A stretch of DNA of 64,000 nucleotides, taken from contig NZ_CP063196.1 of NCBI RefSeq assembly GCF_003574835.2, positions 4,092,001 through 4,156,000 on the forward strand, read 5' to 3'. This stretch comes from Thermobifida halotolerans. GTDB lineage: Bacteria; Actinomycetota; Actinomycetes; Streptosporangiales; Streptosporangiaceae. Both the position numbers and the translations under genes were made by a program. The notes below the pieces were generated by a model, which saw nothing but the letters and a program-made list of their open reading frames with translations, did not search any database and was not told the origin of the DNA. Shown one piece after another: positions 11,770 through 14,922 of this stretch; position 1 is the first letter of the stretch; each line of letters begins with the position of its first letter.

Positions 11770-14700
11770 GTGGAGTTCCACGCCGATCTGCATATCCACT
11801 CCAAGTACTCGCGGGCCTGCAGCAGGGATTGCGACCTGGAGCATCTCGCGTGGTGGGCCGCCCGCAAGGGGATCGCTCTGGTGGGAACCGGTGATTTCAC
11901 TCACCCGGCCTGGCGGGCCGAACTGGAACGCGATCTGGTTCCGGCCGAGCCGGGCCTGTTCCGGCTGCGCCCCGAAATCGAGTCGCGCATCCTGCGGACC
12001 CTGCCGCCCAACTGCCACGCCCTGCCCCGGTTCATGCTGTCGGTGGAGATCTCCACGATCTACAAGCGGGACGACCGCACCCGCAAGGTGCACCACCTGC
12101 TCTACGCACCGTCGCTGGACGCCGCGGGAGCGATCACCGCCGATCTGGGCAGGATCGGCAATCTCGCCTCCGACGGCCGTCCCATTCTCGGATTGGACTC
12201 CAGGGACCTGCTGGAAATCACCCTCGCCAGCGATCCGGGCTCCTATCTGGTCCCCGCGCACATATGGACGCCCTGGTTCTCCGCACTGGGGTCCAAGTCG
12301 GGGTTCGACGCCATCGCCGACTGCTACGCCGACCTGGCCGACCACATCTTCGCGGTGGAAACCGGACTGTCCAGCGACCCGGCCATGAACTGGATGGTGT
12401 CGTCGCTGGATTCCTACACCCTGGTCAGCAATTCCGACGCGCACTCACCGCCGATGCTGGCACGCGAGGCGACCCGGTTCGACACCGATCTGGACTACTA
12501 CGCGGTGCGGCGGGCGCTGGAGACCGGAGCGGGATTCCGCGGTTCGGTGGAGTTCTTTCCCGAAGAGGGAAAGTACCACCTCGACGGGCACCGCAAGTGC
12601 GGTATCCGCTTCGATCCCGAGGCCACCCGCGAGCACAGGGGCCGCTGCCCGGTGTGCGGGAAACCGTTGACGGTCGGCGTGTTCCACCGGGTGAGCGAAC
12701 TCGCCGACCGCCCGGAGGGCTACCGGGTGCCGGAAGCGGCGGACTTCACCAATCTGGTCCCCCTTCCCGAGATCGTCAGTGAGATCGTGGGCGTGGGCCC
12801 CAAGAGCAAGCGGGTCACGGGCGAGGTGACCCGACTGGTGGCCGAACTCGGTCCGGAACTCGCCGTTCTGAACTCGGTGCCCCTGGACGAGGTGACCAGG
12901 GTCGGCGGTGAACTGCTCGGTGAGGCGATCGCCCGGCTGCGGCGCGGCGAGGTCGTCCGGGAGGCCGGATACGACGGCGAGTACGGGGTCATCCGCATGT
13001 TCCACCCCGACGAACTGCGTGCCGAGGCCGCCACGATGGCGCTGTTCGCCGAGCACGAACTCGTCCCGCCTCCGGCTCCGACCCCTCCCCGACGCGGACC
13101 GCGCCGACCGGCACCGCCCGCCGACGGGGCTCCCGGGAAGCCACCGGAGGAGGACGCCGAGCCCGCGCTCTTCCCGGAGGAGGAGACGTCCCCCCGCCCC
13201 CGGCCGCACAGCCTGCTGGACGGGCTCGACCCCGACCAGCGCGCGGCGGCCGAGCACACGGCCGGTCCGCTGCTCATCGTGGCCGGTCCCGGCACCGGCA
13301 AGACCCGCACCCTGACGCACCGGATCGCCCACCTGGTGGCCGAGCGCGGGGTGCTCCCGGAGGAGTGCCTGGCCATCACCTTCACCCGCCGGGCCGCCGA
13401 CGAACTGCGGGAGCGGCTGCGCGCCCTGCTCGCCGAGCGCGCCGCGGCGATGACGATCACGACCCTGCACGGCCTGGGTGCGCTGATCCTGCGGGAGCAG
13501 CACGAACGCGCCGGGCTGGGCGCGCGTTTCACCGTCGTCGACGAGAGCCTGCGCCAGGAGCTCGCCGCCGAGGTCGCGGGCTCCTCCGCTGACGGACGGC
13601 GGCTGCTGGCCCGCCGCGACACCGAGCCGCACGACACCACCGACGACGAGATCGCACGGTTCGAGGCCCGGCTGCGCGAGGCGGACCTGGTGGACTTCAC
13701 CGACCTGATCCGTGTCCCGGTGCGGCTGCTGTCCGCCGACGGGGAACTCGCCGCGCACTACCGCAGGCGCTGGACGCACATCAGCGTGGACGAGTACCAG
13801 GACGTCGACGAGACGCAGTACGCGCTGCTGCGGCTGCTGGCCGCACCGGAGGCGAACCTCACCGCGATCGGCGACCCCGACCAGGCCATCTACGGCTTCC
13901 GAGGCGCCGACGTGGGATTCTTCCTGCGATTCACCGAGGACTACCCGACCGCCCGCACGGTCCAACTGGTCCGCAACTACCGGTCCAACTCCACCATCGT
14001 GAACGCGGCGGTGCAGGCCATCGCCCCCGCCTCGCTGGTGCCGGGACGGGCGCTGCGCGCGGTCGGGGAGTTCGGCGACCCGCCGCGGATCGGCGTCCAC
14101 GTGGCCGCCGACGAGCACGCCGAGGCGTCCTTCGTGGCGCGGGCCATCGACCGCCTGCTCGGGGGGACGTCCCTGCACTCGCTGGACAGCGGCCGGGTGA
14201 CCGAGGACGGGGACGAGTCGCTGTCCTTCAGCGACATCTGCGTGCTGTACCGCACCGACGCCCAGAGCGAGGCGGTCATCAGCGCGTTCAACACCTCGGG
14301 AATCCCGTTCCAGAAGCGCTCGCACGACCGGCTGCTGGCCCGGCCCGAGGTGCGGATCCTCACCGCCGAACTGCCGCACCATCCGGAGGGGCCGGTGGTC
14401 GAACGGGTGCGCTCCGCCGTGGGGGCGCTGTGCCGCCGCTACGCCGACAACGAGCGGCGGGTGACGGACCTGATGACCGCGGGCGAACTGGTGACCCCGT
14501 TGGCCGAGCGGTGCGGGACGGACCTGGCCGAGTTCCTCTCCGCGCTGTCGCTGGGCGCCGAGGTGGACGCCCTGGACCCGCGCGCCGACCGGGTGTCGCT
14601 GCTCACCCTGCACGCGGCCAAGGGACTGGAGTACCCGGTGGTGTTCCTGGTGGGCTGCGAGGACGGACTGCTGCCGTTCCGCTTCCCGGGGGAGGAGCGC

Positions 14701-14922
14701 GGTGACGAGGCCGAGGAGCGCCGCCTGTTCTTCGTGGGCCTCACCCGGGCGCAGCGGCGGCTGTACCTGTCCCGGGCGCGCAGGCGCACCCGGCGCGGGA
14801 CCGCGTACGACGCGGCGGCCTCACCGTTCCTGGCCGCGCTCGACCCGGCGCTGACCATGCGGGTGGACGCGGAGTCGGCCAGCCGGCGACGTCCGAAGGA
14901 CCGGCAACTGCGGCTGCTCTAG
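11770..14922 (+). CDS. Endonuclease Q-like / UvrD-Rep helicase fusion protein
   Basis: One frame of 1050 residues joins two repair modules. Residues 1-420 look like endonuclease Q: a PHP metal site starting HADLHIHS (H4, D6, H8, H10), H45, SVEIS with E93, PAHIWTPWF with H164, and SNSDAHSP with D223 and H225. A zinc-binding loop follows (H274, C277, C293, C296 in CPVCGKPLTVGV), then a helical GVGPKSKRV segment. A Pro/Glu-rich linker spans about 430-480. The rest is a superfamily-1 helicase: Walker A GPGTGKT (506-512), then DEYQD, GDPDQAIYGFRGAD, LVRNYRS and FFVGLTRAQRRLYLS. EndoQ cuts 5' of deaminated bases. The GTG at 11770 follows GGGAGGA by 7 bp and matches the PHP domain start. The family call is firm; the coupled activity is inferred. 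Confidence 0.88.
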   Translation: MEFHADLHIHSKYSRACSRDCDLEHLAWWAARKGIALVGTGDFTHPAWRAELERDLVPAEPGLFRLRPEIESRILRTLPPNCHALPRFMLSVEISTIYKRDDRTRKVHHLLYAPSLDAAGAITADLGRIGNLASDGRPILGLDSRDLLEITLASDPGSYLVPAHIWTPWFSALGSKSGFDAIADCYADLADHIFAVETGLSSDPAMNWMVSSLDSYTLVSNSDAHSPPMLAREATRFDTDLDYYAVRRALETGAGFRGSVEFFPEEGKYHLDGHRKCGIRFDPEATREHRGRCPVCGKPLTVGVFHRVSELADRPEGYRVPEAADFTNLVPLPEIVSEIVGVGPKSKRVTGEVTRLVAELGPELAVLNSVPLDEVTRVGGELLGEAIARLRRGEVVREAGYDGEYGVIRMFHPDELRAEAATMALFAEHELVPPPAPTPPRRGPRRPAPPADGAPGKPPEEDAEPALFPEEETSPRPRPHSLLDGLDPDQRAAAEHTAGPLLIVAGPGTGKTRTLTHRIAHLVAERGVLPEECLAITFTRRAADELRERLRALLAERAAAMTITTLHGLGALILREQHERAGLGARFTVVDESLRQELAAEVAGSSADGRRLLARRDTEPHDTTDDEIARFEARLREADLVDFTDLIRVPVRLLSADGELAAHYRRRWTHISVDEYQDVDETQYALLRLLAAPEANLTAIGDPDQAIYGFRGADVGFFLRFTEDYPTARTVQLVRNYRSNSTIVNAAVQAIAPASLVPGRALRAVGEFGDPPRIGVHVAADEHAEASFVARAIDRLLGGTSLHSLDSGRVTEDGDESLSFSDICVLYRTDAQSEAVISAFNTSGIPFQKRSHDRLLARPEVRILTAELPHHPEGPVVERVRSAVGALCRRYADNERRVTDLMTAGELVTPLAERCGTDLAEFLSALSLGAEVDALDPRADRVSLLTLHAAKGLEYPVVFLVGCEDGLLPFRFPGEERGDEAEERRLFFVGLTRAQRRLYLSRARRRTRRGTAYDAAASPFLAALDPALTMRVDAESASRRRPKDRQLRLL

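What the first reader, a model, noticed from the sequence alone, without database searches (positions are those of the whole stretch)
11770..14922. Endonuclease Q-like nuclease fused to a UvrD/Rep helicase
One 1050-residue frame carries a complete-looking EndoQ module (PHP metal ligands, H/C/C/C zinc loop, GVGPKSKRV segment) and a full SF1 helicase with all main motifs. EndoQ is known mainly from Thermococcales and a minority of bacteria and cuts 5' of deaminated bases. Fusion to a helicase suggests a one-protein system that nicks at uracil, hypoxanthine or xanthine and then unwinds the damaged strand. A heat-loving host would suffer faster cytosine deamination. The combined pathway appears to me to be little described.
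Basis: partly seen in the sequence, partly recalled or inferred. Interest (0 to 1): 0.8.

Follow-up and report, generated by a model that had tools for sequence, protein, structure and literature searches.

The report
DNA-damage nuclease fused to a helicase
One bacterial protein joins an enzyme that probably nicks DNA beside chemically damaged (deaminated) bases to a DNA-unwinding motor, and it ends in a short tag that probably docks it on the replication clamp; this looks like a widespread but little-described form of DNA repair.

Summary
One 1050-codon gene (11770-14922, +) encodes an Endonuclease Q (EndoQ) domain (residues 1-419) and a UvrD/Rep helicase (479-1037), joined by a disordered linker. 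Sequence search and an AlphaFold2 model both match solved PfuEndoQ and UvrD structures. Every catalytic, zinc and base-pocket position checked is filled (one zinc Cys is His). The fusion is not unique: 74 of the 80 related loci kept carry it in one frame, across nine named phyla. EndoQ and helicase trees agree (r = 0.89), which fits one old fusion. All 66 complete fused relatives carry Qxx-L-hydrophobic within their last 25 residues (27 of 27 non-actinomycetes: QxxLF), the beta-clamp-binding consensus; archaeal EndoQ ends in a PCNA box. Most likely mechanism (inferred): nick 5' of uracil, hypoxanthine or xanthine, unwind from the nick, hand the 3'-OH to clamp-bound polymerase. The thermophile argument is unnecessary, and 20 of 20 fused-bearing genomes tested match the UDG family, so this is an extra pathway. 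My searches of the held papers found no description of the fusion; a clamp motif in bacterial EndoQ was noted in 2016. Real, a new variant of a known kind, biochemically untested.

The parts
11770..14922 (+). CDS of the EndoQ-helicase fusion, 1050 aa, GTG start
11756..11762 (+). ribosome-binding site GGGAGGA, 7 bases before the GTG
   Evidence: read directly
11770..13020 (+). EndoQ domain, residues 1-417
   Evidence: PfuEndoQ E 2.6e-48; VIA-align Z 36.1 to 5zb8 over residues 1-419; TIGR00375 E 2.6e-44, best stretch 99-408, below its curated cut-off
12589..12657 (+). zinc loop H274-x2-C277 ... C293-x2-C296 (first ligand His where PfuEndoQ has Cys249)
   Evidence: alignment; all four identical in 80 of 80 loci
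13030..13203 (+). disordered linker, residues 421-478
   Evidence: pLDDT under 50; mean majority-residue frequency 0.28 over 416-478 against 0.74 for EndoQ
13204..14880 (+). UvrD/Rep (SF1A) helicase, residues 479-1037
   Evidence: Z 44.0 to D. radiodurans UvrD 4c30 over 480-1037
13285..13305 (+). helicase motif I (Walker A) GPGTGKT
   Evidence: K511 invariant in 48 of 48
13789..13803 (+). helicase motif II DEYQD
   Evidence: D674, E675, Q677, D678 invariant in 48 of 48
14341..14574 (+). reduced 2B region (about residues 858-935, limits approximate)
   Evidence: R828 to H948 spacing 120 residues here, 104-138 over the 48 proteins of A1, 224 in the genome's own PcrA-like helicase, 131 in its UvrD2-like one
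14905..14919 (+). C-terminal pentapeptide QLRLL, putative beta sliding-clamp-binding motif
   Evidence: Q1046 and L1049 invariant in 48 of 48; Qxx-L-[LIVMF] in the last 25 residues of 66 of 66 complete fused relatives, shuffles mean 3.5, maximum 10

Best explanation
It is a clamp-tethered incision-and-unwinding repair enzyme. Steps: (1) the EndoQ domain flips out uracil, hypoxanthine or xanthine (or an AP site) and cuts the phosphodiester bond 5' of the lesion, leaving a 3'-OH and a 5'-phosphate on the damaged nucleotide. This is inferred from the conserved catalytic and pocket residues; the activity is shown only for relatives such as PfuEndoQ. (2) The tethered UvrD-like motor loads at the nick. 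Running 3'-to-5' on the intact strand, it would peel the downstream strand off from its damaged 5' end. The polarity is that of UvrD-family enzymes; the action here is inferred. The small 2B region suggests a motor less dependent on dimerisation (inferred from Rep with 2B deleted). (3) The C-terminal QLxLF-type tail docks on the beta clamp, placing the enzyme at replicating or freshly repaired DNA, so that a clamp-bound polymerase extends the 3'-OH and a 5' nuclease plus ligase finish. The motif is shown; binding is inferred. It works beside UDG and EndoV rather than in their place.
For: Two complete modules in one frame. EndoQ ligands E93, H108, H164 (Pfu E76, H84, H139, each essential by alanine substitution; PMC8307549 section 4.4, read), D223/H225 and pocket G199/S201 (Pfu G169/S171) identical in 80 of 80 loci. 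Helicase motifs largely invariant. Fold match to both parents. One frame in 74 of 80 loci. Fused helicases separate from the host's PcrA-like and UvrD2-like helicases, SH-aLRT 98 (two outgroups only). EndoQ and helicase distances correlate, r 0.89, 0 of 1000 permutations as high. Clamp-type motif in 66 of 66, fitting the published rules QL(S/D)LF, with Phe, Leu or Ile tolerated last (PMC12309361 passages; PMC11139829 passages). Archaeal EndoQ ends in a PCNA box that stimulates cutting (PMC4858679 passages). No relative found in plasmids or phages with the EndoQ half or in viral contigs with A1.
Against: No biochemistry on any fused protein that I found. The clamp motif is short; in 38 of 39 complete actinomycete relatives its fifth residue is Leu, Ile, Val or Met rather than Phe, and Val and Met are not among the residues that the review passages name as tolerated, so affinity could be weak. 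H8 is Gln in 2 of 80 loci and H109 is Asn in 1. Stand-alone EndoQs lie among the fused ones in the EndoQ tree (L061, L066, L068, L070), and L093 is a 429-residue stand-alone form, so the helicase is dispensable in some lineages; none of these shows the terminal motif. EndoQ is patchy: 9 of 21 near genomes and 5 of 198 sampled in the phylum, host included and one of the five weak. Redundant UDG-family and EndoV matches in the host lower the need for it. The tree program warned that the two outgroup branches are long and may be falsely joined.
Confidence: 0.6

Rival explanations
1. The fusion is an anti-phage protein that cuts uracil-containing or otherwise modified phage DNA and unwinds it, using the helicase as in Gabija-like systems.
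For: The helicase half matches PADLOC GajB models (best E 5e-74) and a DRT helicase model (2.4e-73); a review says bacterial EndoQ may take part in antiviral defence (PMC8307549 section 4.4); the distribution is patchy.
Against: The GajB hits look like general UvrD similarity: the PcrA model scores E 2.5e-117. Of ten ORFs near the gene, one from each of ten loci and picked by a crude ORF caller, nine had Pfam hits and only one of these, a PIN-domain protein, hints at toxin or defence. The order Lsr2 - fusion - acetyltransferase recurs in 3 of the 80 loci, all close relatives, as for a chromosomal housekeeping gene. No hit in plasmids, phages or viral contigs. No search for a GajA-like partner was run.
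Confidence: 0.15
2. The EndoQ domain mainly cuts AP sites or oxidised bases, or removes mis-incorporated dUMP behind the fork, and the helicase clears the displaced strand; deaminated bases are a minor substrate.
For: PfuEndoQ also cuts AP sites and some oxidised pyrimidines (PMC8307549 section 4.4); a clamp-type tail suggests replication-linked action; 20 of 20 fused-bearing genomes tested match the UDG family and the host has an EndoV match.
Against: Pocket residues that exclude T and A in PfuEndoQ (H139, G169, S171) are conserved in 80 of 80 loci, which favours reading of deaminated bases.
Confidence: 0.17
3. The two domains act separately: the fusion only ensures co-expression or tethering, the helicase serving general PcrA-like duties.
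For: The linker varies in length (46-125 residues between the columns of E415 and L486) and is poorly conserved and disordered; stand-alone EndoQ exists in some genomes.
Against: The genome already has PcrA-like and UvrD2-like helicases. Distances of the two halves track each other, and the fused set shares a short 2B region.
Confidence: 0.08

Closest known systems
Endonuclease Q (PfuEndoQ, TkoEndoQ, B. pumilus EndoQ; TIGR00375/COG1379)
   Same: Same fold over residues 1-419 (Z 36.1), 134 of 376 aligned positions identical, all catalytic, zinc and pocket positions checked filled, and a clamp-type motif at the C-terminus.
   Different: A helicase of about 560 residues lies between the nuclease and the terminal motif; first zinc ligand is His instead of Cys; scores below the TIGR00375 cut-off (152 bits, 137, against 326.6).
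UvrD/PcrA/UvrD1 (SF1A helicases)
   Same: SF1 motifs and overall fold.
   Different: 2B region about 100 residues shorter than in the host's PcrA-like helicase; far below the equivalog cut-offs for PcrA, UvrD and Rep; own clade against two outgroups.
Actinobacterial UvrD2 (host copy, name recalled)
   Same: Similarly short stretch before motif V (120 against 131 residues).
   Different: 33% identity; no EndoQ domain.
AddAB, RecBCD, AdnAB, Dna2-like and Gabija helicase-nucleases
   Same: Helicase and nuclease work together.
   Different: Nucleases there belong to other families and act on ends, flaps or sequence sites (recalled); here the nuclease is an EndoQ-type lesion nickase.

Membership tests
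EndoQ | Metal ligands Glu76, His84, His139 and Asp193 (Pfu numbering) | tested here: met
   E93, H108, H164, D223 by alignment; 80 of 80 loci. Asp193 taken as important because the chain of 7k30 reads Asn there.
EndoQ | Base pocket His139, Gly169, Ser171 | tested here: met
   H164, G199, S201 identical, 80 of 80.
EndoQ | Zinc site with four ligands (four Cys in Pfu) | tested here: met
   H274, C277, C293, C296, 80 of 80; His replaces the first Cys, so met in number but varied in kind.
EndoQ | Whole-length similarity and fold | tested here: met
   Residues 4-415, E 2.6e-48; Z 36.1, rmsd 2.7 over 379 residues.
EndoQ | Score above the TIGR00375 cut-off | tested here: not met
   152 bits against 326.6. 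In the 14 control genomes 3 rang and 2 passed the cut-off; 0 of 21 relatives passed it. It is NCBI's naming threshold, so I do not treat it as defining EndoQ chemistry.
EndoQ | Nicking 5' of dU, dI, dX, AP | not testable with these tools
   needs an assay
EndoQ | C-terminal sliding-clamp motif | tested here: met
   QLRLL here; motif in 66 of 66 complete fused relatives. Binding itself not tested.
UvrD/Rep helicase (SF1A) | SF1 helicase motifs incl. Walker A, DEYQD, GDPDQxIYGFRGA, motif V, motif VI arginine | tested here: met
UvrD/Rep helicase (SF1A) | Full-size 2B subdomain | tested here: not met
   120 residues between R828 and H948 against 224 in the host's PcrA-like helicase; 131 in its UvrD2-like one.
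UvrD/Rep helicase (SF1A) | ATP-driven 3'-to-5' unwinding | not testable with these tools
   needs an assay
Beta-clamp client | QL(S/D)LF or QxxL-hydrophobic in a free tail | tested here: met
   tail has pLDDT mostly under 50
Beta-clamp client | Physical DnaN binding | not testable with these tools
   needs an assay
Gabija (GajAB) | GajA partner beside the helicase | not tested
   no GajA search was run; the adjacent window genes look Lsr2- and acetyltransferase-like (names recalled from the translations)

The most novel reading that the evidence does not exclude
A one-polypeptide, clamp-tethered nucleotide-incision repair machine found across many bacterial phyla: it nicks at deaminated bases, unwinds from its own nick, and recruits replicative polymerase through a terminal motif that swaps the archaeal PCNA box for a bacterial beta-clamp box, giving bacteria a glycosylase-independent long-patch repair route.
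Probability: 0.4. Interest if true: 0.78.

Novelty: new variant of a known kind. Interest (0 to 1): 0.6.

Why it matters
EndoQ is described as mainly archaeal, with homologues in some limited groups of bacteria (PMC4357722 and PMC6202378 passages). If active, they are an overlooked second uracil and hypoxanthine repair pathway in bacteria that coexists with UDG. They would also make the question of what follows EndoQ incision directly testable, because the next two steps (unwinding, polymerase hand-off) appear to be built into the same protein. B. [quoted passage not shown] a fused nickase-helicase with the same trait could be a useful reagent (inference).

Tried and rejected
Thermophily as the reason for the fusion: rejected as unnecessary, since fused loci come from Micromonospora, Salinispora, Gastranaerophilales, Elusimicrobia and others (lifestyles recalled). 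Replacement of UDG: not supported; PF03167 matches in 21 of 21 genomes (host and 20 relatives) and in 20 of 20 fused-bearing genomes (20 of the 74 fused loci were given). PF03167 also covers glycosylases that may not act on uracil. EndoV matches in 13 of 21, host included. Mobile or viral origin: no match for the EndoQ half in plasmids, phages or PHROGs, and none for A1 in viral contigs (two peptide patterns, 23 pattern matches, none a relative). Conserved operon: Lsr2 and acetyltransferase neighbours found in 3 of the 80 loci (L009, L010, L017) and no common theme among the ten neighbours scanned. A second clamp half-motif in the linker: a loose xxLF pattern matched in 35 of 48, left unexplained.

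Literature: 11 papers hold both EndoQ terms. One paper holds EndoQ, UvrD and fused; the EndoQ and UvrD passages shown do not describe a fusion, its 'fused' passage was not looked up. PHP-domain/UvrD/fusion searches listed 3, 4 and 14 papers, and endonuclease Q with helicase 8; of these I saw passages only of PMC3820547, PMC5311915, PMC4357722, PMC8307549 and PMC13238157, the rest as listings. The 2018 structure paper and the 2020 substrate paper are not held; the 2017 B. pumilus paper and the 2021 structure paper were not looked up. Figure 9A of PMC4357722 could not be seen, so a bacterial homologue drawn there with a long C-terminus cannot be excluded.

Limits. The 80 loci are the best by similarity to the window out of a capped scan, so 74 of 80 overstates the fused share among all bacterial EndoQs. 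Of the 74, eight were dropped from the tail count because the frame is cut by a contig end or breaks early (L018, L043, L049, L056, L064, L069, L081, L088), leaving 66. The trees and the correlation used 50 of the 66 plus the window, 16 closely similar actinomycete loci being left out. A1 holds the window and 47 of the 66.
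Full report
What is there. The frame 11770-14922 (+) encodes 1050 residues starting at a GTG with GGGAGGA seven bases before it. The N-terminal 417 residues are an EndoQ: phmmer finds PfuEndoQ 5zb8 over residues 4-415 at E 2.6e-48, and the AlphaFold2 model (mean pLDDT 84.5) superposes on 5zb8 over residues 1-419 with Z 36.1 and rmsd 2.7 over 379 residues. Residues 479-1037 are a UvrD/Rep helicase (Z 44.0 to D. radiodurans UvrD 4c30; M. tuberculosis UvrD1 E 4.8e-79). 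Residues 421-478 between them have pLDDT under 50. pTM is 0.57, so the relative placement of the two halves is not resolved. Pfam gives no PHP family above its cut-off, and the TIGR00375 score is under its cut-off (152 against 326.6 bits); the EndoQ assignment rests on PfuEndoQ itself and on the fold.

Active-site check. On the alignment printed the window keeps the PHP residues H8, H10, D42, E93, H108, H164, D223 and H225, the pocket residues G199 and S201, and four zinc ligands, H274, C277, C293 and C296, the first being Cys in PfuEndoQ. Identity to PfuEndoQ is 134 of 376 aligned positions. In the 80 related loci, D6, H10, D42, E93, H108, H164, G199, S201, D223, H225 and the four zinc ligands are identical in 80 of 80, H8 in 78 and H109 in 79. 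The Pfu equivalents of E93, H108 and H164 are each essential (PMC8307549 section 4.4, read).

How common the fusion is. In 74 of 80 the same frame runs into a helicase with motif I or II. The 74 are 40 Actinomycetota, 8 Melainabacteria, 6 Pseudomonadota, 6 Planctomycetota, 4 Elusimicrobiota, 2 Binatota, 2 Myxococcota, 1 Verrucomicrobiota, 1 Chloroflexota and 4 without a phylum. Eight of the 74 are cut by a contig end or break inside the helicase. Two more (L082, L087) have the helicase directly downstream in a separate piece; four (L061, L066, L068, L070) show none in the stretch held. Many records are metagenome bins, so single phylum labels may be wrong. Among 21 near genomes, host included, 9 have the family, and 8 of those 9 have an open frame over 1000 residues; the ninth, L093, stops after 429 residues with no helicase match in the stretch held. 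In a sample of 198 genomes of the phylum, 5 match, the host among them and one weak: the gene is patchy.

One fusion or many. A quick tree of the window's helicase, 50 of the 66 complete fused relatives and the host's PcrA-like and UvrD2-like helicases separates the fused ones from the two outgroups with SH-aLRT 98. The program warned that the two outgroup branches are long and may be falsely joined, and only two outgroups were used, so single origin is likely rather than proven. The EndoQ tree has much the same main groups, and pairwise distances of the two halves over 51 proteins correlate at 0.89, with 0 of 1000 permutations as high. Descent with the host alone also raises such a correlation. 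Stand-alone EndoQs sit among the fused ones, which suggests occasional loss of the helicase.

The tail. Over the 48 proteins of A1 the mean majority-residue frequency falls from 0.59 in the helicase to 0.37 after it, then rises to 0.76 for the last five residues. Q1046 and L1049 are invariant in 48 of 48. All 66 complete fused relatives have Qxx-L-[LIVMF] in the last 25 residues, 61 of them as the very last five; 28 are QxxLF, among them all 27 that are not labelled Actinomycetota. Shuffling the last 25 residues gives a mean of 3.5 and a maximum of 10 of 66 in 500 rounds. In 38 of 39 complete actinomycete relatives the fifth residue is Leu, Ile, Val or Met. The known beta-clamp motif is QL(S/D)LF or QxxLF (PMC12309361 passages), with Phe, Leu and Ile tolerated last (PMC11139829 passages); QLSLF is the C-terminal motif of PolC. 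Archaeal EndoQ has a PCNA box at its C-terminus; in T. kodakarensis it binds PCNA1 with KD 55 nM and is needed for stimulation of nicking (PMC4858679 passages). That same 2016 paper already says that beta-clamp consensus motifs occur in the C-terminal region of putative bacterial EndoQ homologues, so the motif idea is not new. What is added here is that the motif stands behind a whole helicase and is kept in every complete fused protein examined. The stand-alone relatives L061, L066, L068 and L070 do not show it.

The motor. Between R828 and motif-V H948 there are 120 residues (104-138 over the 48 proteins of A1) against 224 in the host's PcrA-like and 131 in its UvrD2-like helicase, so the 2B region is reduced. 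In Rep, deletion of 2B activates the monomer, and 2B is autoinhibitory in this family (PMC13238157 passages). A fused motor with little 2B may therefore not need dimerisation; this is inference.

Setting. The gene lies between an Lsr2-like and an acetyltransferase-like gene (names recalled from the translations). Matches to both occur near the fusion in 3 of the 80 loci, L009, L010 and L017; in L010 other ORFs lie between the fusion and the acetyltransferase. Ten ORFs near the gene in ten other loci share no theme. The host genome also has PcrA-like, UvrD2-like and AdnAB-like helicases (names recalled), two PF03167 (UDG family) matches and an EndoV match. The host is probably a Thermobifida-like actinomycete: genus genome sizes of 3.6-5.5 Mb and two neighbouring PETase-family genes, one nearest to 3vis. 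The genus name is recalled and unproven.

Verdict. It is a new variant of EndoQ: filed as EndoQ by fold and residues, though it fails NCBI's TIGR00375 score cut-off, and as a UvrD-like helicase with a reduced 2B. Activity, unwinding and clamp binding are all untested.

Noticed in passing
window 13036-13050 (residues 423-427, MALFA): A short xxLF-like motif just after the EndoQ core was matched by a loose pattern in 35 of 48 fused proteins, near where archaeal EndoQ carries its PCNA box; unexplained.
   Followed up: partly
L093: A relative in the same family encodes EndoQ alone (stop after 429 residues, ending in PTLF) with no helicase match in the stretch held.
   Followed up: partly
L082, L087, L043, L081: Relatives in which the fused frame is split near or inside the helicase; sequencing error or real splitting cannot be told.
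   Followed up: no
L106, L107 (own genome): Two neighbouring PETase-family genes in the host genome, one closest to PDB 3vis.
   Followed up: partly
L012, L040, L059, L062, L065: Fused proteins in which the clamp-type motif is followed by extra residues instead of being the very end.
   Followed up: no
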